Of a stretch of 8,200 nt of DNA, positions 1,760 to 8,200 are shown piece after piece. Source of the stretch: Candidatus Hydrogenedentota bacterium (lineage in GTDB: Bacteria > Spirochaetota > Leptospiria > Turneriellales > J094); assembly GCA_003695005.1 (NCBI GenBank), contig RFJE01000151.1, positions 1 through 8,200 on the forward strand. The letters run 5' to 3'. The position numbers and the translations under genes were made by a program. Each line of letters begins with the position of its first letter. Within the stretch, counting starts at the first letter, position 1. A model generated the notes under the pieces. The model searched no databases, had not been told where the DNA came from, and saw nothing but the letters and a program-made list of their open reading frames with translations.

Positions 1760-1783
1760 AGACTTTCTCCCTGTCGTTTTTTC

Positions 1784-1795
1784 GGGGCAAGCCCC
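1784..1795 (-). promoter_or_regulatory. Short GC hairpin in STAS leader
   Basis: GGGGC-AA-GCCCC is a perfect 5-bp stem with a 2-nt spacer. It sits in the presumed 5' leader of the STAS gene, about 13 nt before the GGGAGA ribosome binding site. It has no following U-tract on the minus strand, so it is not a terminator for that strand. It could modulate access to the ribosome binding site or mRNA stability, or be fortuitous. Confidence 0.3.
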
Positions 1796-1827
1796 CTACC
1801 GTATTGCATACAGCAAATCTAAATAAC

Positions 1828-1855
1828 AGTATCGCGAAGCGGTTGCTTTCGTCAA
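1828..1855 (-). promoter_or_regulatory. Candidate sigma70-type promoter for STAS gene
   Basis: On the minus strand TTGACG (1855-1850) is followed after 16 nt by GATACT (1833-1828). These match TTGACA in five of six positions and TATAAT in four of six. The predicted transcript start near 1820 gives a leader of roughly 60 nt before the STAS ATG, which contains the GGGGC hairpin. This is a motif judgement by eye only. Confidence 0.4.
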
Positions 1856-1873
1856 CTAAAAAAAGGTTTTTTT

Positions 1874-1895
1874 GGATAATATAAAAAAATTATCC
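1874..1895. repeat. AT-rich inverted repeat upstream of STAS promoter
   Basis: GGATAAT (1874-1880) and ATTATCC (1889-1895) are perfect 7-bp arms around an 8-nt A-rich loop. Immediately to the left is a second symmetric element, seven A, GG, seven T (1858-1873). The pair sits directly upstream of the candidate -35 box. It may be an operator or a bent UP-like AT tract; no protein can be named. Confidence 0.4.
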
Positions 1896-1905
1896 TCATA
1901 AGCGT

Positions 1906-1927
1906 CTGTGTGCTAGCTAGCGCACAG
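1906..1927. repeat. 22-bp near-perfect palindrome
   Basis: The sequence pairs over ten positions on each side of a 2-nt GC centre (CTGTGTGCTA / TAGCGCACAG), with a single T:G wobble. It has no U-tract on the plus strand. On the minus strand a T7 run lies about 17 nt beyond it, too far for a classical intrinsic terminator. It could be a dimeric repressor site upstream of the STAS promoter, a terminator relic of the inserted element, or part of a small repeat family. Confidence 0.4.
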
Positions 1928-1992
1928 CAATTCTCGGTGAAACATAGATTTTTTATTTTAGTCTTTAGAAATCGTTAGGTAGGAGAGCAGAT

Positions 1993-2111
1993 GTGTTAAA
2001 AAAACAGGGCAAAAGTCAGTAATTTTCTTGGTTTTAGGAGTCTGTGCACCAACTGTAGCAGGTTTCGGACAAAAAGCCATATTTTTTGCAATAATGCCTG
2101 ACAACCAATAA
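1993..2111 (+). pseudogene. Vestigial plus-strand gene start with signal-peptide-like sequence
   Basis: AGGAG (1981-1985) lies eight nt before GTG 1993. As written, the GTG frame stops after nine codons. If the 7-A run at 1998-2004 had one more A, the frame would read VLKKTGQK, then a hydrophobic stretch (VIFLVLGVCAPTVAG), then FGQKAIFFAIMPDNQ, and stop at 2109-2111, giving 39 codons. The basic start, hydrophobic core and small-residue end look like an exported-protein leader. I infer a decayed or frame-disrupted gene start, possibly the 5' part of a gene interrupted by the neighbouring transposase relic. It could equally be chance in AT-rich DNA. No family is recognised. Confidence 0.3.
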
Positions 2112-2170
2112 ATTTTTCTATGGATAATGTATTCAAAAAGTATTTTTACGGATTTTTGCTTAATGACTAG

Positions 2171-2638
2171 TTAATAATGCCCGAATTTCCCCATACTGGA
2201 TGCAATAGAGGCTCTCATTTTATCTCAATTTCTACTTTTTCTTTGCTGTGAAGATAAAATCGGCGTAAGTGTCTCCGCGTTTTTCATATACTAAAGGTAA
2301 GTTCTATTTCTTCCGAACGTTCTTTGTGTTTTTCCTTAGCTTCTGAGGTTTTCATTTTGCGGATCATTTCATGACAAAGTTCATGATCTTCACTGACCAC
2401 TAATTCCTTTCGACCACGCCTTTCTTCATCTTTTGTCGTAAAACAAACTTTCTACTCATAAAACGACAATTCATATCCGTAACATTTACTTGCTTCCCAC
2501 CTCCTTTGCTTTCTTCTCGCTATTAATCTCCCTTTTGCGTTTTTGCTCAGAATAAAATTTCTTAAATTCCTCCTCTAACTTTTCAATGTCTAAATCTAAA
2601 TCTTCACTTTCTTTATCACCGAAACAATCATCCTCTTC
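2171..2638 (-). pseudogene. Decayed IS1182-type transposase (C-terminal half, frameshifted, internally deleted)
   Basis: Minus-strand fragments in different frames line up in order with the C-terminal half of IS1182-type DDE transposases (Pfam DDE_Tnp_1_6 style). Block 1 (2638-2489) is an acidic linker EEDDCFGDKESEDL followed by a charged helix, ending KKAKEVGSK and a stop. Block 2 (about 2495-2458), in another frame, reads KQVNVTDMNCRFM, matching the family's NVTDPDSR-like motif. Block 3 (2451-2221), in a third frame, reads CFTTKDEERRGRKELVVSEDHEL, then MKTSEAKEKHKER and EEIELTFSI-stop-K..RRFYL..KEKVEIE. This corresponds to the family's vSE.hEL...M...L.t.eGk..Y..R...iEp.F..iK....RRF.LrG motif chain. 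Block 4 (2218-2171) reads ASIASSMGKFGHY, like the family's terminal IASN-type helix. The region between blocks 2 and 3 is far too short, so the catalytic middle is missing. The relic cannot be active. Assignment is from motif memory, not a search. Confidence 0.7.
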
Positions 2639-2689
2639 TCTATCCTCTTAATCCTCTTAGATAATCGCGATTTGCGAATGCCACAATAA

Positions 2690-2812
2690 TCACGCTCTAG
2701 TTGGCGCATGGGTTCTTACCCTGGACACGGAAGCTTAACTACTGGTTGTGATGTAAGCTCTGTAATCTCCGGCATAACAATGATGAAATATGGTAGTAAT
2801 GGTTACCCATAA
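2690..2812 (+). other. Short plus-strand open stretch, possible gene 3' remnant
   Basis: This frame is open from 2690 to a TAA at 2810-2812. From ATG 2708 it would give 34 residues, starting MGSYPGHGSLTTGCDV and ending KYGSNGYP, a Gly/Ser/Tyr composition unlike random AT-rich translation. There is no good ribosome binding site, which fits a 3' remnant better than a gene. Together with the signal-peptide-like stretch at 1993 it could be the other half of a small exported protein split by the transposase relic. No family is recognised and chance remains likely. Confidence 0.2.
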
Positions 2813-2820
2813 AAGATCAT

Positions 2821-3711
2821 TTATGCGTGACTTAAAGCGTCTCTTAAAAGCGGATATTGAAATGTAAAGCCCGCTTTACACAATTTCTCGCAAGAGACGC
2901 GGCTTCCTTCTAAAAGCATTTGTGACATTTCACCAAAGGCCGTTTTTAAGACAAAGCTCGGCACAGCAGGAAGCCAGCTTTTGCGACCGAAGGTTTCCAA
3001 CAAGGTATTGGTAAATTCTTTGTTCGTAATATGCTGTGGCGCGGTAAGGTTGTAAATGCCTTCGGTATTCTTTTCTAAAGCCCATGCAAAAGCGCGCGCG
3101 GCGTCTTCTATATGTACCCACGGCATGTATTGCTCGCCGGAACCTAAGGGGCTTAAAAGGGAAAATTTTGCCGGCAGATAAAGTTTTTGCAAAATACCGG
3201 AATGCCGATCCACAACAACCCCCAAACGAAAAATCGTAACTCGAGAAGCAACATCCTCGGCCTGAAAGGCCAAAGCGGCTTGTTCCCACTCATGGCAAAG
3301 TTTTGCTAAAAAATCGTCCGAGGGTGGGTCGTCTTCGGTGAAAATGTGATCGGTTGTTCGAGCGCCATAGTAGCCCGTGGCCGATGCCGAGACAAAGGAA
3401 TCTAGCTTATGATTTTTTTGCTTTAAGCTGTTCAACAGAAGTTTGGCGCTGTCTACGCGACTTGATGTTAGTTCTTTTTTGCGCGAGGCCGTCCATCTTT
3501 TGTCGGCCACAGAAGCCCCCGCTAAATGCACAATGCCAGAGACACCTTCTAGAGCGCGTAAGTCGAGTTCCTCCTTTTGGGTATGCCAATAAAACGTGTT
3601 TTCACTATCAGGGTTTCGACTTAAGAATCGAATTTGATAATTTTGGCGTAGTTTTTTCGCGAGATTTGGCGCGAGCGCTCCATGTTTGCCTGTAATGAGA
3701 ATTTTTTTCAT
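2821..3711 (-). CDS. TIGR01777-type SDR / NAD(P)-binding epimerase-like protein (YfcH family)
   Basis: The 296-residue product has the usual length of the family. The nucleotide-binding loop is ITGKHGALA (residues 6-14); it keeps two of the three classical glycines and has Ala14 at the third. Other family signatures are VHLAGASVADKRW (61-73), SASATGYYG (108-116) with the catalytic-type Tyr, FRLGVVV (161-167), GSGEQYMPWVHIEDAA (190-205), YNLTAPQ (220-226) and a C-terminal DUF1731-like LPAVPSFVLKTAFGEMS. The physiological substrate of this family is unknown. It is the last gene of the operon, starting 15 nt after the previous stop. It lacks a recognisable Shine-Dalgarno sequence, so re-initiation from upstream translation is likely. 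Its place beside lipid genes suggests an oxidoreductase step on a fatty-acyl or membrane substrate, but that is inference. Confidence 0.9.
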   Translation of the reverse strand: MKKILITGKHGALAPNLAKKLRQNYQIRFLSRNPDSENTFYWHTQKEELDLRALEGVSGIVHLAGASVADKRWTASRKKELTSSRVDSAKLLLNSLKQKNHKLDSFVSASATGYYGARTTDHIFTEDDPPSDDFLAKLCHEWEQAALAFQAEDVASRVTIFRLGVVVDRHSGILQKLYLPAKFSLLSPLGSGEQYMPWVHIEDAARAFAWALEKNTEGIYNLTAPQHITNKEFTNTLLETFGRKSWLPAVPSFVLKTAFGEMSQMLLEGSRVSCEKLCKAGFTFQYPLLRDALSHA

Positions 3712-3726
3712 GATGTTCGTAGACGT

Positions 3727-4455
3727 TTACCATGGGTCAAAATCGATGATCGTTTCATAGTTATCTCCCTCTTCATCGCGTAAATTGCTAATCCCCTGAA
3801 AGCTCAATAAGCGCCTTTTTTCTTTATCGTAATATAAAGAAAATCCTTTTACAAACAGTCTGTAGAATATGTTGTTTAAGTCGAGCGTATATTGTACGGC
3901 ACTTCGCCCGTTATACCTCGTATCTTTGACTTTATACAGGCGAAATTCCAAAAGCGTCAAGCGCGAAGGAACAGCAAAAAAGACGCGCATCTTTTTTCCG
4001 GTTTGCAGTTCCTTCCACTTTAGTCTGATGAACCGATCAAAACCAGCGTCTAGAACAAGGGGAGTTTTGATTCTTAAGATATCAGACTCTAACTTTGCGG
4101 ATTTGTCGCGTCGAAAGTATAATTTTACTTTGCCAGGAGGAAGCAGGGTTGCCCCTTCCATATAGCCCGTGCGAAGATCTTCTGTGACAAAATCAGGGGC
4201 TGTTTGGCTTTTTGAGTAATCCACCCTTTTCTTTACAATCACCTTGCCTTTCGGGTCGGTGTACGTTACCTGCGAAGCGATGTGCTTGCCGTTTTGCCAG
4301 ATTTCTCTATGGTTTTCATAATAATAAATTTTCTTTCTATCTTTAGAGTAAGCTGTTGCCCGGTAAACGATTTTATCTTTAGCGTAAAGCGTTGCGGTCG
4401 TGAGCAGAAAAAAAGATAACGTCCCGCACAAACTCTTATGCATGCGCGATACCAT
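3727..4455 (-). CDS. Conserved exported protein of unknown function in lipid-modification operon
   Basis: The 242-residue product begins MVSRMHKSLC, then a hydrophobic core (GTLSFFLLTTATLYA), with likely signal peptidase I cleavage after Ala25 (LYA|KD). I see no lipobox Cys and no further membrane segment, so it should be periplasmic. The mature part is rich in Lys, Arg, Tyr and alternating hydrophobics, suggesting a beta-rich fold. Memorable stretches are FVTEDLRTGYMEGA (89-102), LVLDAGFDRFIRLKW (133-147), VFFAVPSRLTLLEFRLY (158-174) and LLSFQGISNLRDEEG (216-230). The general look, a beta-rich barrel for hydrophobic ligands such as in DUF3108- or lipocalin-like proteins, is only a guess. AGAGGA five nt before ATG 4455 supports this start, which overlaps the methyltransferase gene by 20 nt. 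Met5 (4443) is an alternative with a poorer ribosome site. Operon context implies a role with modified membrane lipids outside the cytoplasm. Confidence 0.85.
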   Translation of the reverse strand: MVSRMHKSLCGTLSFFLLTTATLYAKDKIVYRATAYSKDRKKIYYYENHREIWQNGKHIASQVTYTDPKGKVIVKKRVDYSKSQTAPDFVTEDLRTGYMEGATLLPPGKVKLYFRRDKSAKLESDILRIKTPLVLDAGFDRFIRLKWKELQTGKKMRVFFAVPSRLTLLEFRLYKVKDTRYNGRSAVQYTLDLNNIFYRLFVKGFSLYYDKEKRRLLSFQGISNLRDEEGDNYETIIDFDPW

Positions 4456-5755
4456 GAAAATCCTCTAACTTTCTGTTTTCGGGCCGCGAAAGCACAATCT
4501 GCACGTCATTAATGTAGCGCGAGGCAAACCCAACCTCGCAGAAAACAAGGTAAAAAAGCCATTTGCGAATAAAGGCTTCGCTGAATCCCATCGCTTTGAC
4601 TTCGTCGAGGTTTGCCTTAAAATTGTGTCGCCATTCGCGTAAGGTGCGCGCGTAGCTTATACCCATACTCTCCACATCATAGACTTCTAACTTACCCACA
4701 CGCAAAAGCGATTTTCGAAATTCATGCAGCGAAATCAACAAGGAACCGGGGAAAATATGCTTTTGTATCCAGTCCGTTCTACGTGTGTAGGGCTTAAAGC
4801 GACTGTCTGGGTACGTGATGCATTGTATAACGGCAATCCCATCTGGTTTTAAAGACCTGCTCAGAATTTTGCAGAAGTCGTCATAGTATTCGAGCCCGAT
4901 GGCTTCTATCATTTCAATCGAAACAATTTTATCATACTGTCCTTGAACCTTGCGGTAATCTTTCAGTTCAATTTGGATTTTTGATTCTAAGTTTTTTTGT
5001 TTAATTAAATTCGAGGTATACGCAAATTGTTCTTTCGATATAGTAATCGTTGTTACTTTGCACCCATATTTTTCTGCGGCATACACCGCAAAACCACCCC
5101 ATCCGGAACCAATCTCTAAGACATGATTTTGTTCTTGTAAATTGAGCTTTCGGCAAATTGTTTCATACTTATTGATTTGCGCCTCTTGCAAGGTTTCTTT
5201 TCCTGTAAGATATAACGCCGAAGAATAGGTCATGGTAGAATCGAGCATAAGCCGATAGAAGTCATTCGAGAGGTCATAGTGAAAGGCAATATTCTCTTTA
5301 GCCTTTTTAGGAGTATTTTTTCGCGTAAGATGCCAAAGGTAATTTGATATGCCCAGGATGTTTACCCACACAAACCGAGCGGTAGATTCCGCAAATCCAG
5401 GCGTGGAATCGGTGTTTTGCATAAACCAGTCGAGCACTGCATAGAGATCTTCAGAGTCCCATAAATTTTCAACGTAGGCTTCACCAAACCCCGTTGTTCC
5501 AAATAAGACGCATTTTTTAAAGAAAGCATAGTCATGGACATGCAACGTGGCTTTTTGTGTACTTTCTCGGTCTCCGAAAACAAAATGACTTCCGTTAGGA
5601 GTAATAATATCTAGACGCCCCCGCGAAGCCCTATTTAAGGCTTTATACAAAAGTTTTTCATAAAGAGTTTTGGGCTGTCCAGGCTCTTTGTCTCGAGCAT
5701 AGAGTCTTACCTCGGACTTTTTCGCCTCAAGTTTCTTATTTTTTTGTTGTAGCAT
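4436..5755 (-). CDS. cfa: Cyclopropane-fatty-acyl-phospholipid synthase-type SAM methyltransferase
   Basis: The 439-residue product has the full two-part Cfa layout: an N-terminal lipid-binding region (to about 140) and a SAM methyltransferase domain. The substrate motif HYDLSNDFYRLMLD is at residues 159-172, the SAM loop VLEIGSGWGG at 212-221, and the IVSIEMIEAIG motif at 277-287, with Glu284 matching the conserved active-site Glu. Tyr368 in SYARTLREW matches the conserved Tyr near the bicarbonate site. At the position of the E. coli active-site Cys139 this protein has Ser179 (MTYSSALY); Gln311 (IQCI) sits where E. coli has His266. Family members transfer methylene or methyl from SAM to double bonds of phospholipid acyl chains in the membrane. 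Those variants are typical of the COG2230 subgroup found with COG2907 and DUF1365, so the product could be a cyclopropane or a methyl-branched acyl chain. AAGGA precedes the start; it overlaps the DUF1365 gene by 20 nt. Confidence 0.93.
   Translation of the reverse strand: MLQQKNKKLEAKKSEVRLYARDKEPGQPKTLYEKLLYKALNRASRGRLDIITPNGSHFVFGDRESTQKATLHVHDYAFFKKCVLFGTTGFGEAYVENLWDSEDLYAVLDWFMQNTDSTPGFAESTARFVWVNILGISNYLWHLTRKNTPKKAKENIAFHYDLSNDFYRLMLDSTMTYSSALYLTGKETLQEAQINKYETICRKLNLQEQNHVLEIGSGWGGFAVYAAEKYGCKVTTITISKEQFAYTSNLIKQKNLESKIQIELKDYRKVQGQYDKIVSIEMIEAIGLEYYDDFCKILSRSLKPDGIAVIQCITYPDSRFKPYTRRTDWIQKHIFPGSLLISLHEFRKSLLRVGKLEVYDVESMGISYARTLREWRHNFKANLDEVKAMGFSEAFIRKWLFYLVFCEVGFASRYINDVQIVLSRPENRKLEDFHGIAHA
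4461..4466 (-). promoter_or_regulatory. Ribosome binding site of exported protein, inside cfa
   Basis: AGAGGA lies five nt before ATG 4455 and within the last codons of the methyltransferase gene. It favours the longer start of the exported protein over Met5 at 4443 and implies coupled translation. Confidence 0.65.
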
Positions 5756-6536
5756 ATCTTTTTCCTTTTTGTTGTTTTATTAGTACGTCCACCTCTGCTT
5801 TTTTATAGTAAGGTAACCGTTTCAAATATAATTTTAAGGCTTGTTTATGAATAAGATAAATAATTCGCCAGGTGATGAGGGGGTAGCGAAAAAATAAATA
5901 CCAAATTTGCTTCGTGGAAATAGGTTTTTGCTTGCCTACCAGGCCTGCTTTTAATTCCACACCATTTTCGGATAAAGAATCGGTTCTTATGTTGAGACTG
6001 TCCGATGGCGCTTTTGCCTTGAAATGAAATTTGGCATCGTGCGAAATAAAAGGGGAGACATAAAAGTTTTTTGTCTCGACCGTCTCAAAGGTATCTTTCG
6101 TCTCTGTTGGACTGAGATAAACAAGCTTTTGTTCACCAAAAGTGTTGTTTACTTCCGCGAAGCAAGCGTAAGGCTTCTCGTTCTTGTCGTAGAAAAAATA
6201 AAAACTCACCGGGTTAAAAACATAGCCCATCACGCGAAGATGCGTCAGAATACAAATGCGCTGTGGTATCGGCAGGTTTAGGTCAGTGGCGATCTCATAG
6301 AGCTTTTGCTTCACCCTTAAAGGTCGAGGATCCCATAGGCCGTGGTCTTTCTCCCTAAAACTAAAAAGACCGAGCTTATTGTAAGAAATAAGAGAGCTTC
6401 TTGATTGCATGATTTCATCCAGGTCTAGATGCCAAAGAAAAATGCGATAAGAAAAATAGTTCTTAACCTTAAAATCCCGAGCATGCCAAACACGACCTTC
6501 ATATACACAACTTTTTACCCATTTCTTGGTGTTCAT
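5736..6536 (-). CDS. DUF1365 (COG3496) protein
   Basis: The product is 266 residues from ATG 6536. The family signatures are all present: CVYEGRVWHAR (10-20), DLDEI after a YRIFLWHLDL strand, THLRVMGYVFNPVSFYFFYD (98-117), CFAEVNNTFGE (125-135), KNFYVSPF (156-163) and a C-terminal basic-hydrophobic helix ITWRIIYLIHKQALKLYLKR (221-240). The biochemical function is not established in general. The family almost always travels with COG2907 flavoproteins and Cfa-type methyltransferases, and is taken to act with them on membrane acyl chains. I chose ATG 6536 because GGAG lies six nt upstream and its ATGA overlaps the stop of the flavoprotein gene. A GTG at 6551 would add five residues but destroys that logic. 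The gene overlaps cfa by 20 nt at its end. Confidence 0.93.
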   Translation of the reverse strand: MNTKKWVKSCVYEGRVWHARDFKVKNYFSYRIFLWHLDLDEIMQSRSSLISYNKLGLFSFREKDHGLWDPRPLRVKQKLYEIATDLNLPIPQRICILTHLRVMGYVFNPVSFYFFYDKNEKPYACFAEVNNTFGEQKLVYLSPTETKDTFETVETKNFYVSPFISHDAKFHFKAKAPSDSLNIRTDSLSENGVELKAGLVGKQKPISTKQIWYLFFRYPLITWRIIYLIHKQALKLYLKRLPYYKKAEVDVLIKQQKGKRYATTKK

Positions 6537-7774
6537 ACCAGACTCCGACACAATTCTACCGCGGACAAATAGCCATCTTCATGAAACCCATAGCGAAAAT
6601 AAGCTCCCGTAAAGTAGACAGGCCCTTCGAGGTTGAGTTTTCGTAAACTAGGTTGCATTTCAATGGCCCGCGTATCAAAAAGGGGATGCTCATACACGAT
6701 CGTTTTGTGGATTTTCTCGGCAGCAACAGGCAGAAATTCATTGATCGATACAAAGTAGTTGTTGTCAGACTTTATATTCTGCAGTTTGTTCATCCAGTAA
6801 ACCGTAGAGGATTTGTCTTGTCGGGTACGATAGTTCCATGATGACCAAATACGACGAAGAGGTGGCATTACGCTTTCATCAGAATGAAGAGTGGCGATGT
6901 TTCGTGTATAGCGAAAAGCCGATAGCACTTTTCGTTCATCGTTTGTTGGATTCTCGAGAATTCTAAGAGCGTCGGGCGCATGCGCAGCAACAATTACTTT
7001 ATCAAAAACCTCATAAGCATTACCTGTAAATACTTTTACTTTTCTGCCATCCGTGGTTATTTTTGTAACGGGGAGATTTGTAAAGACATCAGGATGTTGC
7101 GCCTCTTTTATTTTCTCGCGAATTTTATTCATATAAACGCGTGATCCCCCCGTGACGGTATACCATGTATGCTGCGTTGTCATTCCTAAGAAACCATGAT
7201 TGTGAAAAAATCGAATCAATGTAATTGCGGGGAACTTAAGCATATCTTCTGCGGGCGTAGACCATACCGCAGATGCCATCGGCACAAGAAAGTTCATGAC
7301 GAAGGCTTCGCTAAAATTTTGCTGGCGTATATACTCTTCGAGGGTGACCTTTGGCGATAGGTTTCTCAGATGCTCGGGAGCAGATTCGTTAAAGCGGTTG
7401 ATTTCGAGTAAGAATCGATAGTACTTTGGCCGGAATATGTTTTTTCTCTGTGCAAAGAGTCCATTTAAATTGGAGCCATTGTATTGAAGTCCTGTGACCA
7501 GGTTATGGAAGGAAAAAGACATGTTGCTTTTTTCATAAGGAACCCCGAGCTCGTCGAAGAGTTGCAGCAAATTTGGATATGTAACCTTGTTAAAGACAAT
7601 AAAGCCGGTATCTACGGGGAGCGTGTGCGCACCTTCGCGTACTTCTACCGTGTTGGTATGCCCCCCTACATAGGATTCTTTTTCATATACTTTAAGGTCA
7701 TAGTCATGCCGCAAGAGATAAGCTGAGCCCATCCCCGATATGCCGCTTCCTACAATGGCTAATGTTTCTTTCAT
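6533..7774 (-). CDS. COG2907 FAD-dependent amine-oxidase-like flavoprotein
   Basis: The 413-residue product has the normal length. The FAD dinucleotide-binding motif AIVGSGISGMGSAYLL is at residues 6-21, with the ribose-binding acid at Glu31 (VYEKE), followed by GGHTNTVEV (37-45) and VDTGFIVFN (54-62), both typical of COG2907. The central MASAVWSTP motif and the C-terminal FAD-closing motif VYFTGAYFRYGFHEDGYLSA (386-405) are intact. Members are predicted NAD/FAD oxidoreductases linked to Cfa-type methyltransferases. Related flavoproteins act on methylated acyl chains, for example as desaturases on the way to furan fatty acids, so an acyl-chain oxidation role is inferred here. It starts one nt after the regulator stop. 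AAGGA is about 12 nt from the ATG, rather far, so coupling probably helps. The 3' end overlaps the DUF1365 gene by four nt. Confidence 0.94.
   Translation of the reverse strand: MKETLAIVGSGISGMGSAYLLRHDYDLKVYEKESYVGGHTNTVEVREGAHTLPVDTGFIVFNKVTYPNLLQLFDELGVPYEKSNMSFSFHNLVTGLQYNGSNLNGLFAQRKNIFRPKYYRFLLEINRFNESAPEHLRNLSPKVTLEEYIRQQNFSEAFVMNFLVPMASAVWSTPAEDMLKFPAITLIRFFHNHGFLGMTTQHTWYTVTGGSRVYMNKIREKIKEAQHPDVFTNLPVTKITTDGRKVKVFTGNAYEVFDKVIVAAHAPDALRILENPTNDERKVLSAFRYTRNIATLHSDESVMPPLRRIWSSWNYRTRQDKSSTVYWMNKLQNIKSDNNYFVSINEFLPVAAEKIHKTIVYEHPLFDTRAIEMQPSLRKLNLEGPVYFTGAYFRYGFHEDGYLSAVELCRSLV
6543..6546 (-). promoter_or_regulatory. Ribosome binding site deciding the DUF1365 start
   Basis: GGAG sits six nt before ATG 6536 and lies downstream of the alternative GTG at 6551. 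It supports the ATG, which shares its bases with the preceding TGA as ATGA, a classical translational-coupling arrangement. Confidence 0.75.
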
Positions 7775-7775
7775 G

Positions 7776-8200
7776 TTACTTTTTTTCCTTTTCTCTCAAT
7801 GCTTCTCGTCGACGAAGTTTTCGATAGCCGCAGCCCCCGAACAGAACCTTCGTCGTGGCACGCGCCGAGCGTAAGTCATTTCTTATTTTGGTTATTGCTT
7901 TTGTTGTTTGCGGCATCACTATCGAGAGATGCACACTCTTATACGGAGTTTTACGCACTTCGTCGAGAAGATGGGCACGCTCCACCATACCGATATAGCG
8001 GGTAGAAATAGCGTAGCTTTTCAAAACCAGATTATGCATAAAGGCGCCTAGTTCATGCTCATCTTCGGGGAAGCTGGCCACTAAGACCGCCGGCATTTTT
8101 TCAGAGGCGATTTGGTATTGTCCGAGGTAGCCTAAAAACCAGCGCGAAAATGAGTGCTCATCCGTAATCGATAACAGGCCTTCTTCCCAAGCGTTACCAA
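7776..8200 (-). CDS. LitR/CarH-type cobalamin-binding light-sensor regulator (5' end cut by window edge)
   Basis: Only the C-terminal 140 residues are visible; the frame is open to the right edge, so the Met at 8096 is internal. Reading on from the edge gives GNAWEEGLLSITDEH: Trp (8187-8189), nine residues, then Glu-His (8159-8154). This is the Wx9EH signature of AdoCbl-binding photoreceptor regulators, where the Trp caps the adenosyl group. Next is the Rossmann-type B12-binding domain with FPEDEHELG, the DxHxxG motif whose His (8055-8057) would be the lower cobalt ligand, and VLFGGCG at the end. In the family, an N-terminal MerR DNA-binding domain precedes this; the dark tetramer represses and light breaks the Co-C bond, releasing DNA. 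The MerR part is off-window, so a non-DNA-binding B12 protein is possible. The tail after GGCG is only about 16 basic residues, shorter than usual. It is co-directional with and one nt from the flavoprotein gene. Confidence 0.88.
   Translation of the reverse strand, partial: GNAWEEGLLSITDEHSFSRWFLGYLGQYQIASEKMPAVLVASFPEDEHELGAFMHNLVLKSYAISTRYIGMVERAHLLDEVRKTPYKSVHLSIVMPQTTKAITKIRNDLRSARATTKVLFGGCGYRKLRRREALREKEKK

What the first reader, a model, noticed from the sequence alone, without database searches (positions are those of the whole stretch)
2821..8200. B12-dependent light-sensor regulator fused by operon to a membrane-lipid modification module
The sequence shows Wx9EH and DxHxxG in the first gene, then COG2907, DUF1365, Cfa-type methyltransferase, an exported protein and a TIGR01777 SDR protein with gaps of -20 to +15 nt. 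LitR/CarH regulators control lipid, carotenoid and photolyase genes in other phyla. If the host is a spirochaete, a self-controlled, light-responsive lipid operon there would be notable, since light sensing is little described in that group.
Basis: partly seen in the sequence, partly recalled or inferred. Interest (0 to 1): 0.7.

Follow-up and report, generated by a model that had tools for sequence, protein, structure and literature searches.

The report
B12 light switch for furan lipids
In a spirochaete related to Leptospira, a gene that likely encodes a vitamin-B12 light sensor sits at the head of a tight row of genes matching the known bacterial pathway for furan fatty acids, so light would likely switch on a protective change of the cell's membranes.

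Summary
It matches ufaD, ufaO (DUF1365) and ufaM, the furan-fatty-acid pathway; the Cfa-type enzyme has Gln at the bicarbonate His, like operon UfaM copies. At 22 of 28 LitR loci of relatives, in 13 genera, litR directly precedes ufaD. A 29-bp palindrome precedes litR or its operon in 14 of those 22, and in some relatives also photolyase, uvrA, BLUF-cyclase and DUF1295-methyltransferase genes. Exact copies occur in 12 of 28 LitR+ and 1 of 33 LitR- genomes. The clade lacks the His after the motif Trp (0 of 29). Light, B12 and furan products are untested, and the window's own genome shows neither a MerR half nor the operator. Light-inducible ufaM operons under B12-free class II LitR are known in Pseudomonas, so this is a new variant of a known kind.

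The parts
7776..8198 (-). litR/carH, 3' end (140 codons), cut by the contig end: part of the four-helix cap and the B12-binding Rossmann domain
   Evidence: PF02310 30.3 bits; CarH model positions 128-250; T. thermophilus CarH E 0.003; relatives 31-43% identical
8154..8189 (-). Wx9EH motif (adenosyl cap); the residue after Trp is Glu, not His
8046..8063 (-). DxHxxG motif (lower axial His)
6533..7774 (-). ufaD-like NAD(P)/FAD oxidoreductase, starts 1 nt after the litR stop
   Evidence: 44-68% identical copies after litR in relatives; UfaD family in D-O-M order in 70 of 80 outside loci
5736..6536 (-). ufaO-like DUF1365 protein (ATG start overlapping ufaD by ATGA; ORF call from GTG 6551)
   Evidence: PF07103 216.9 bits; UfaO is a DUF1365 protein (PMC7380195)
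4436..5755 (-). ufaM-like SAM methyltransferase of the Cfa family, with Ala/Gln at Cfa His240/His266
   Evidence: PF02353 277.8 bits; residues
3727..4455 (-). exported protein, predicted LolA/RseB/DUF1849-like fold
2821..3711 (-). TIGR01777 SDR-family oxidoreductase, last gene of the row, lineage-specific here
   Evidence: 283.9 bits; not found in the 38 relative stretches

Best explanation
The window carries the 3' end of a LitR/CarH-type gene followed 1 nt later by ufaD-, ufaO- and ufaM-like genes, and the regulator is predicted to bind adenosylcobalamin, to repress this row in the dark and to let go in light, so that furan-type fatty acids would likely be made when photo-oxidative damage threatens. 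Shown from sequence: the gene order, the two cofactor motifs, the UfaM-type residues, the conserved litR-ufaD pair in 13 other genera, and in relatives a 29-bp palindrome (TGTCnAAnnTT-n7-AAnnTTnGACA) upstream of litR or its operon. Inferred: the palindrome is LitR's operator; at many litR promoters its right arm doubles as a TTGACA-like -35 box, so bound LitR would block RNA polymerase and also limit its own synthesis. Inferred from CarH: green, blue or UV light cleaves the Co-C bond, the AdoCbl-held oligomer falls apart, and the row is transcribed. Inferred from Rhodobacter: UfaM methylates an unsaturated acyl chain, UfaD adds a second double bond, UfaO inserts O2 to close the furan. The exported LolA-like protein may carry or sense such lipids. 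The same site lies before photolyase, uvrA, BLUF-cyclase and DUF1295-methyltransferase genes in some relatives, which suggests a wider photo-damage regulon.
For: Both CarH-defining motifs in the window. litR directly before ufaD at 22 of 28 other LitR loci, 13 genera, 3 families, with ufaO and ufaM next in 20 of the 22. D-O-M is the order of R. palustris RPA2571-2569 (PMC7380195) and of 70 of 80 outside loci. UfaM-type Ala/Gln residues in the window and 29 of 29 Leptospirae copies. Site TGTC-n21-GACA exact in 7 of 26 litR upstream regions against 0 or 1 for every other spacing from 10 to 30; exact 14-letter pattern in 12 of 28 LitR+ and 1 of 33 LitR- genomes (Fisher p 2.5e-4); 8 of the exact sites lie away from the litR loci, before uvrA, DUF1295-methyltransferase, desaturase, BLUF-cyclase and other genes. 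Photolyase is divergent from litR in 5 loci. Own genome has a PduO-type cobalamin adenosyltransferase.
Against: The window's litR lacks its start, and no MerR domain, operator at up to 1 mismatch, photolyase, DUF1295 or BLUF gene was found in its 80%-complete genome. The His that becomes the upper cobalt ligand of CarH in light is absent in 29 of 29 and in 66 of 67 further homologues with the motif; one study found the H132A variant mostly still tetrameric in light (PMC10442372). One relative (G004) keeps operon and site although its LitR has lost both motifs. At 1 mismatch the pattern equals its control genome-wide. The pattern was derived from some of the promoters counted, and related genomes are not independent. 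The 5 loci of genus g18 and L081 show no n20/n21 site. In G029 the ufaO frame holds a stop.
Confidence: 0.6

Rival explanations
1. The regulator controls the row but not by AdoCbl photolysis: like CarA of Myxococcus or class II LitR of Pseudomonas it reads a partner protein or another signal, or it senses B12 status rather than light.
For: No His after the motif Trp in 29 of 29; the G004 LitR has lost Trp and the motif Gly yet keeps operon and site; CarA and class II LitR show that the family can drop B12 (PMC9304148; PMC9758184).
Against: Wx9EH intact in 27 of 29 and D/ExHxxG/P in 25 of 29, and Wx9EH in 67 of 73 homologues, which argues that the cofactor site is under selection; photolyase and BLUF-cyclase genes share the site in relatives.
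Confidence: 0.22
2. The module makes cyclopropane or merely methyl-branched acyl chains, not furan fatty acids.
For: The methyltransferase belongs to the Cfa family; R. sphaeroides UfaM itself was not available for alignment; furan acids in leptospires were not found in print.
Against: Gln in place of the bicarbonate ligand His266, D-O-M gene order, and a DUF1365 protein, the furan-forming family in Rhodobacter. G023 with ufaD but without ufaO and ufaM shows the set can be reduced.
Confidence: 0.12
3. LitR does not control these genes: it is only a neighbour, and the palindrome belongs to another regulator.
For: No site was found in the window's own genome; no n20/n21 site in the 5 loci of genus g18.
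Against: 1-nt gap here, 22 linked loci in 13 genera, site at litR promoters themselves, exact sites almost only in LitR+ genomes, and no site before ufaD in 6 LitR-lacking genomes.
Confidence: 0.06

Closest known systems
CarH / class I LitR (Thermus thermophilus, Myxococcus xanthus, Bacillus megaterium)
   Same: MerR head in relatives, Wx9EH cap and D/ExHxxG B12 motif; predicted dark repressor released by light
   Different: No His after the Trp; palindromic site in relatives and no sign of tandem 11-bp direct repeats in 26 upstream regions; target is a furan-lipid operon, not carotenoid genes
Class II LitR operons of Pseudomonas (PplR1/PmlR1: phrB, SDR, FAD oxidoreductase, ufaM)
   Same: LitR-family regulator with a light-inducible operon holding a FAD oxidoreductase, ufaM and photolyase (PMC9758184)
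   Different: Class II LitR lacks B12 binding and works through a LOV protein; here the B12 motifs are intact and litR is the operon's own first or near-first gene
UfaD-UfaO-UfaM furan fatty acid pathway (Rhodobacter sphaeroides, Rhodopseudomonas palustris)
   Same: Same three families, same D-O-M order as RPA2571-2569 (PMC7380195)
   Different: Regulated in Rhodobacter through sigma-E/ChrR; here headed by a B12-type LitR; product not shown
Light-dependent cyclases of leptospires (LprA of L. kobayashii, PMC9043183; TpPAC, seen only in its reference list)
   Same: Light sensing in the same class of spirochaetes
   Different: Second-messenger enzymes, not transcription factors; BLUF-cyclase genes here carry the candidate LitR site
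Cyclopropane fatty acid synthase (Cfa)
   Same: Family fold and SAM-dependent transfer to acyl chains
   Different: His266, a bicarbonate ligand, is Gln, and His240 is Ala

Membership tests
CarH / class I LitR | N-terminal MerR-type DNA-binding domain | tested here: inconclusive
   Missing in the window because the contig ends; none in the own genome; present in relatives (PF13411 in L065 and L066; motif in 27 of 27 with a start)
CarH / class I LitR | Wx9EH motif (PMC8156234) | tested here: met
   Window 8189-8154; 27 of 29 in the aligned set
CarH / class I LitR | D/ExHx2G/Px41SxT/Vx22-27GG motif (PMC9304148) | tested here: met
   DEHELG, x40, SIV, x26, GG in the window: one residue shorter in the first spacer
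CarH / class I LitR | His after the Trp (present in many, not a defining motif) | tested here: not met
   0 of 29; 1 of 67 homologues. Lowers 'works exactly like T. thermophilus CarH', not membership by the two defining motifs
CarH / class I LitR | Operator of tandem 11-bp direct repeats nAnnTnnACAn (PMC8156234) | tested here: not met
   0 of 26 litR upstream regions of relatives score above shuffles at 5%; a 29-bp palindrome is found instead. Own promoter not available
CarH / class I LitR | AdoCbl binding and light-dependent DNA release | not testable with these tools
   Needs purified protein
UfaM (cis-vaccenate 11-methyltransferase) | Cfa-family methyltransferase encoded with UfaD and UfaO | tested here: met
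   D-O-M order as in R. palustris
UfaM (cis-vaccenate 11-methyltransferase) | Residue class of operon UfaM copies (Glu, Ala, Gln, Tyr) | tested here: met
   Window and 29 of 29 Leptospirae copies; outside copies Ala 73 of 73, Gln 72 of 73 with one gap. A signature found here, not a published one
UfaO | DUF1365 domain, next to ufaD | tested here: met
   216.9 bits; invariant H23, R25, D43, D69, N113, E133 in 18 aligned
UfaD-UfaO-UfaM pathway | Production of furan fatty acids | not testable with these tools
   Needs lipid analysis
Cyclopropane fatty acid synthase | Bicarbonate ligands Glu239, His266, Tyr317 (PMC11387697) | tested here: not met
   Glu, Gln, Tyr in the window
Class II LitR | Only the four-helix part of the B12 domain; no B12 binding (PMC9758184) | tested here: not met
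   Rossmann part with DxHxxG and GG present

The most novel reading that the evidence does not exclude
Leptospirae use a separate branch of B12 photoreceptors that works without the bis-histidine photoproduct and grips a single 29-bp palindrome instead of tandem direct repeats. Through it one light-released repressor commands a photo-damage regulon: its own gene, furan-lipid synthesis (ufaDOM and a DUF1295-methyltransferase pair), photolyase, uvrA and a BLUF cyclase. It would be a direct photoreceptor-to-furan-lipid circuit, distinct both from the singlet-oxygen sigma factor of Rhodobacter and from the LOV-LitR relay of Pseudomonas.
Probability: 0.35. Interest if true: 0.78.

Novelty: new variant of a known kind. 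Interest (0 to 1): 0.6.

Why it matters
If true, it names a B12 photoreceptor, a DNA site and a lipid product for a light response of spirochaetes, and ties furan fatty acids directly to light sensing. It also offers a natural test of how CarH-type sensors could work without the histidine held to drive the photoswitch, in a class of genomes where regulator, site and targets can be compared, including one lineage (G004) whose LitR has lost its B12 motifs while operon and site stay.

Tried and rejected
Cyclopropane-synthase reading of the Cfa-like gene: set aside because Gln replaces His266. Missing MerR half elsewhere in the same genome: searched, none found. Operator in the own genome: none at up to 1 mismatch. 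Photolyase, DUF1295 and BLUF genes in the own genome: none found in this 80%-complete bin; no BtuR-type adenosyltransferase either, but a PduO-type one.

Operator tests that were weak or negative: generic inverted-repeat scoring of single upstream regions beat all 40 shuffles in only 4 of 26 (L077, L079, L087, L092), so the shared letters and spacing, not any single hairpin, carry the claim. At 1 mismatch the genome-wide pattern equals its control. The exact site in LitR- G048 lies inside a coding frame. Half-site letters in the 31 aligned sites are invariant partly because sites were chosen by them. The -10-like hexamers match 1 to 6 of 6 letters, best of five spacings, and were not tested against chance. 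CarH-like tandem repeats were not found.

Literature searches: CarH with Leptospira (14 papers, none on a leptospiral CarH by its listing); LitR with furan fatty acid; Leptospira with furan fatty acid; any two of CarH, cyclopropane, furan, UfaM, LitR (428 papers, 20 listed; the only listed one treating LitR together with UfaM is PMC9758184). Only open-licence papers are covered.
Full report
Observation. The window is a whole 8,200-bp contig (C307) of a genome bin held as G000 (2.19 Mb, 80% complete). On the minus strand six ORFs follow one another: a 140-codon open fragment at 7776-8198, then 6533-7774, 5736-6551, 4436-5755, 3727-4455 and 2821-3711. Gaps are +1, an ATGA overlap (start ATG 6536) or -19 (GTG 6551), -20, -20 and +15. 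No sigma-70-like site lies on the minus strand between 7774 and 3711.

Host. The relatives picked by the tool share order, class or phylum with G000. LitR proteins whose longest contigs have the lengths of the G004 (527,751 bp), G021 (387,361 bp) and G032 (12,660 bp) contigs are named Leptospiraceae bacterium by their source, and that of G026 (1,073,807 bp) Spirochaetales bacterium. The window's gene at 2-1417 matches LipL71 (209.8 bits, below that model's cut-off of 600). So the host is a spirochaete of the Leptospira class; its own name is not known.

The regulator. The fragment aligns to CarH of Thermus thermophilus (E 0.003) and to positions 128-250 of the CarH model. It has Wx9EH, DxHxxG, SxV and GG. 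According to PMC8156234 and PMC9304148 (passages read) the two motifs together define CarH and set it apart from the B12-independent CarA. In the window plus 28 relatives Wx9EH is intact in 27 of 29, D/ExHxxG/P in 25 of 29, and a His after the Trp occurs in 0 of 29. Among 73 homologues of the L066 LitR, 67 carry Wx9EH and 1 of these 67 has that His. In T. thermophilus CarH this His becomes the upper cobalt ligand in light; its H132A variant mostly stayed tetrameric in one study although an earlier one reported disassembly (PMC10442372, passages). Two full-length relatives tested have a Pfam MerR domain and 27 of 27 relatives with a start have the recognition-helix motif; the bin itself shows no MerR domain.

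Linkage. LitR was found in 28 of 61 genomes and DUF1365 in 32 of 61, the own genome included. Of 28 LitR loci outside the window, 22 have litR directly before ufaD, in 22 genomes, 13 genera and 3 families; 20 of the 22 have ufaO and ufaM next (L078 lacks them, L068 is cut; the ufaO frame of L066/G029 holds a stop). The six others are L077, L083, L086, L087, L090 and L092; L086 and L087 end at the contig edge right after litR. Distances of LitR and UfaD among 23 loci correlate (Mantel r 0.76, 0 of 2000 permutations as high), as vertical inheritance of the pair would give. Outside Leptospirae, of 80 UfaD loci 13 have ChrR near, 14 a MerR/LitR-type gene near, and 2 of these 14 carry both B12 motifs: L165 (gammaproteobacterial bin, same strand upstream) and L168 (Burkholderiales bin, divergent). 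Of eight plasmid loci read, four have sigma/ChrR, one a MerR gene (Aeromonas), one another HTH gene, one no regulator by annotation and one no annotation. So the B12-type LitR with ufaDOM is common in Leptospirae and rare elsewhere in this sample.

The DNA site. In 26 litR upstream regions (two of the 28 had no clear start) TGTC-n21-GACA occurs exactly in 7 and with up to one mismatch in 11; other spacings from 10 to 30 give 0 or 1 exact and 0 to 6 with one mismatch. Counting sites at the operon head, 14 of 22 litR-ufaD loci have one: L065, L066, L071, L072, L075, L076, L078, L079, L080, L082, L084, L088, L089 and L091, five of them with one or two half-site mismatches or n20 spacing. Of the other eight, L067 and L085 lack the upstream DNA; the five g18 loci and L081 show none (L081 has n22). 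At litR promoters the right arm mostly supplies a TTGACA-like box with a -10-like hexamer 15-18 nt on and the start codon often close behind (for example L065, L079, L083, L091), which suggests leaderless transcripts. In L086, L088 and L089 the site instead abuts the start codon of a methyltransferase gene that precedes litR. The pattern TGTCNANNNTTN7AANNNTNGACA has 16 exact sites in 13 genomes: 12 of 28 LitR+ and 1 of 33 LitR-; within the class it is 12 of 28 against 0 of 20; the reversed control is in 2 of 61 (Fisher p 2.5e-4 for all). The pattern was shaped on some of these promoters and relatives are not independent. Eight exact sites lie away from the litR loci: before uvrA (G023), a DUF1295-methyltransferase pair (G014), a fatty acid desaturase and an unnamed gene beside a PAS gene (G004), a TonB receptor (G010) and BLUF-cyclases (G015, G016, G017). 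Sites shared with divergent photolyase genes are in L065, L071 and L078, and with genes of the BLUF-cyclase cluster in L065, L071, L080, L083 and L087. In LitR+ genomes with ufaD apart from litR a site precedes ufaD in G044 (one mismatch) and G026, not in G045; G031 lacks the upstream DNA. In six LitR-lacking genomes (G019, G020, G025, G035, G039, G047) none was found before ufaD. CarH-like tandem 11-bp repeats were not above shuffles in any of 26 regions. The window's own genome has no match.

Mechanism. From these facts and the known biochemistry of CarH (PMC8156234) I infer a dark repressor that blocks the -35 region of its own operon and leaves in light, so that furan-type acyl chains are made when photo-oxidation threatens. 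The light step, the cofactor and the product are untested. The missing His argues for a different light-state ligand or a weaker switch.

What is known. Light-inducible operons with ufaM under B12-free class II LitR and LOV proteins are described in Pseudomonas (PMC9758184, introduction and passages). Light-controlled motility through the cyclase LprA is described in Leptospira kobayashii (PMC9043183, passages). Text searches joining LitR with furan fatty acid and Leptospira with furan fatty acid gave 0 papers; only open-licence papers are covered. I rate it a new variant of a known kind.

Noticed in passing
L091:5633-6415 (G004): A LitR at the head of a full ufa operon that has lost the motif Trp and the Gly of DxHxxG, while the operator-like site and operon remain: a possible CarA-like, B12-independent turn.
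   Followed up: partly
L124:11617-12690: A stand-alone B12-binding protein with Wx9EH but no helix-turn-helix, next to an ECF sigma factor gene, about 5 kb downstream of a ufa operon in an uncultured bacterium.
   Followed up: no
L115:9258 onward and L156:9123 onward: Homologues of the exported LolA-like protein beside ufa genes in a Chitinophagaceae bin and a Thiotrichaceae bin (247 and 196 bits).
   Followed up: no
L083, L087, L092: Second-type LitR proteins with DxHxxS instead of DxHxxG, not next to ufa genes, each with the 29-bp site upstream.
   Followed up: partly
window 5736-6536: UfaO/DUF1365 is confidently modelled (pLDDT 91) as a barrel plus long C-terminal helices; best solved-structure matches are weak and of fatty-acid-binding-like and nitrobindin type.
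   Followed up: partly
window 1760-2820: About 1 kb without any ORF of 80 aa between the SDR gene and a STAS anti-sigma-antagonist-like gene (1424-1759), possibly decayed coding DNA; a LipL71/LysM-like gene lies at 2-1417.
   Followed up: no
window 8198 and L067:15675: In both G000 and its relative G011 the contig ends inside litR; chance or an assembly-breaking sequence.
   Followed up: no
L223:1504-2382 and L232:1858-2514: The site also precedes a fatty acid desaturase (G004, exact) and, with one mismatch, a SOUL heme-binding protein (G010).
   Followed up: partly
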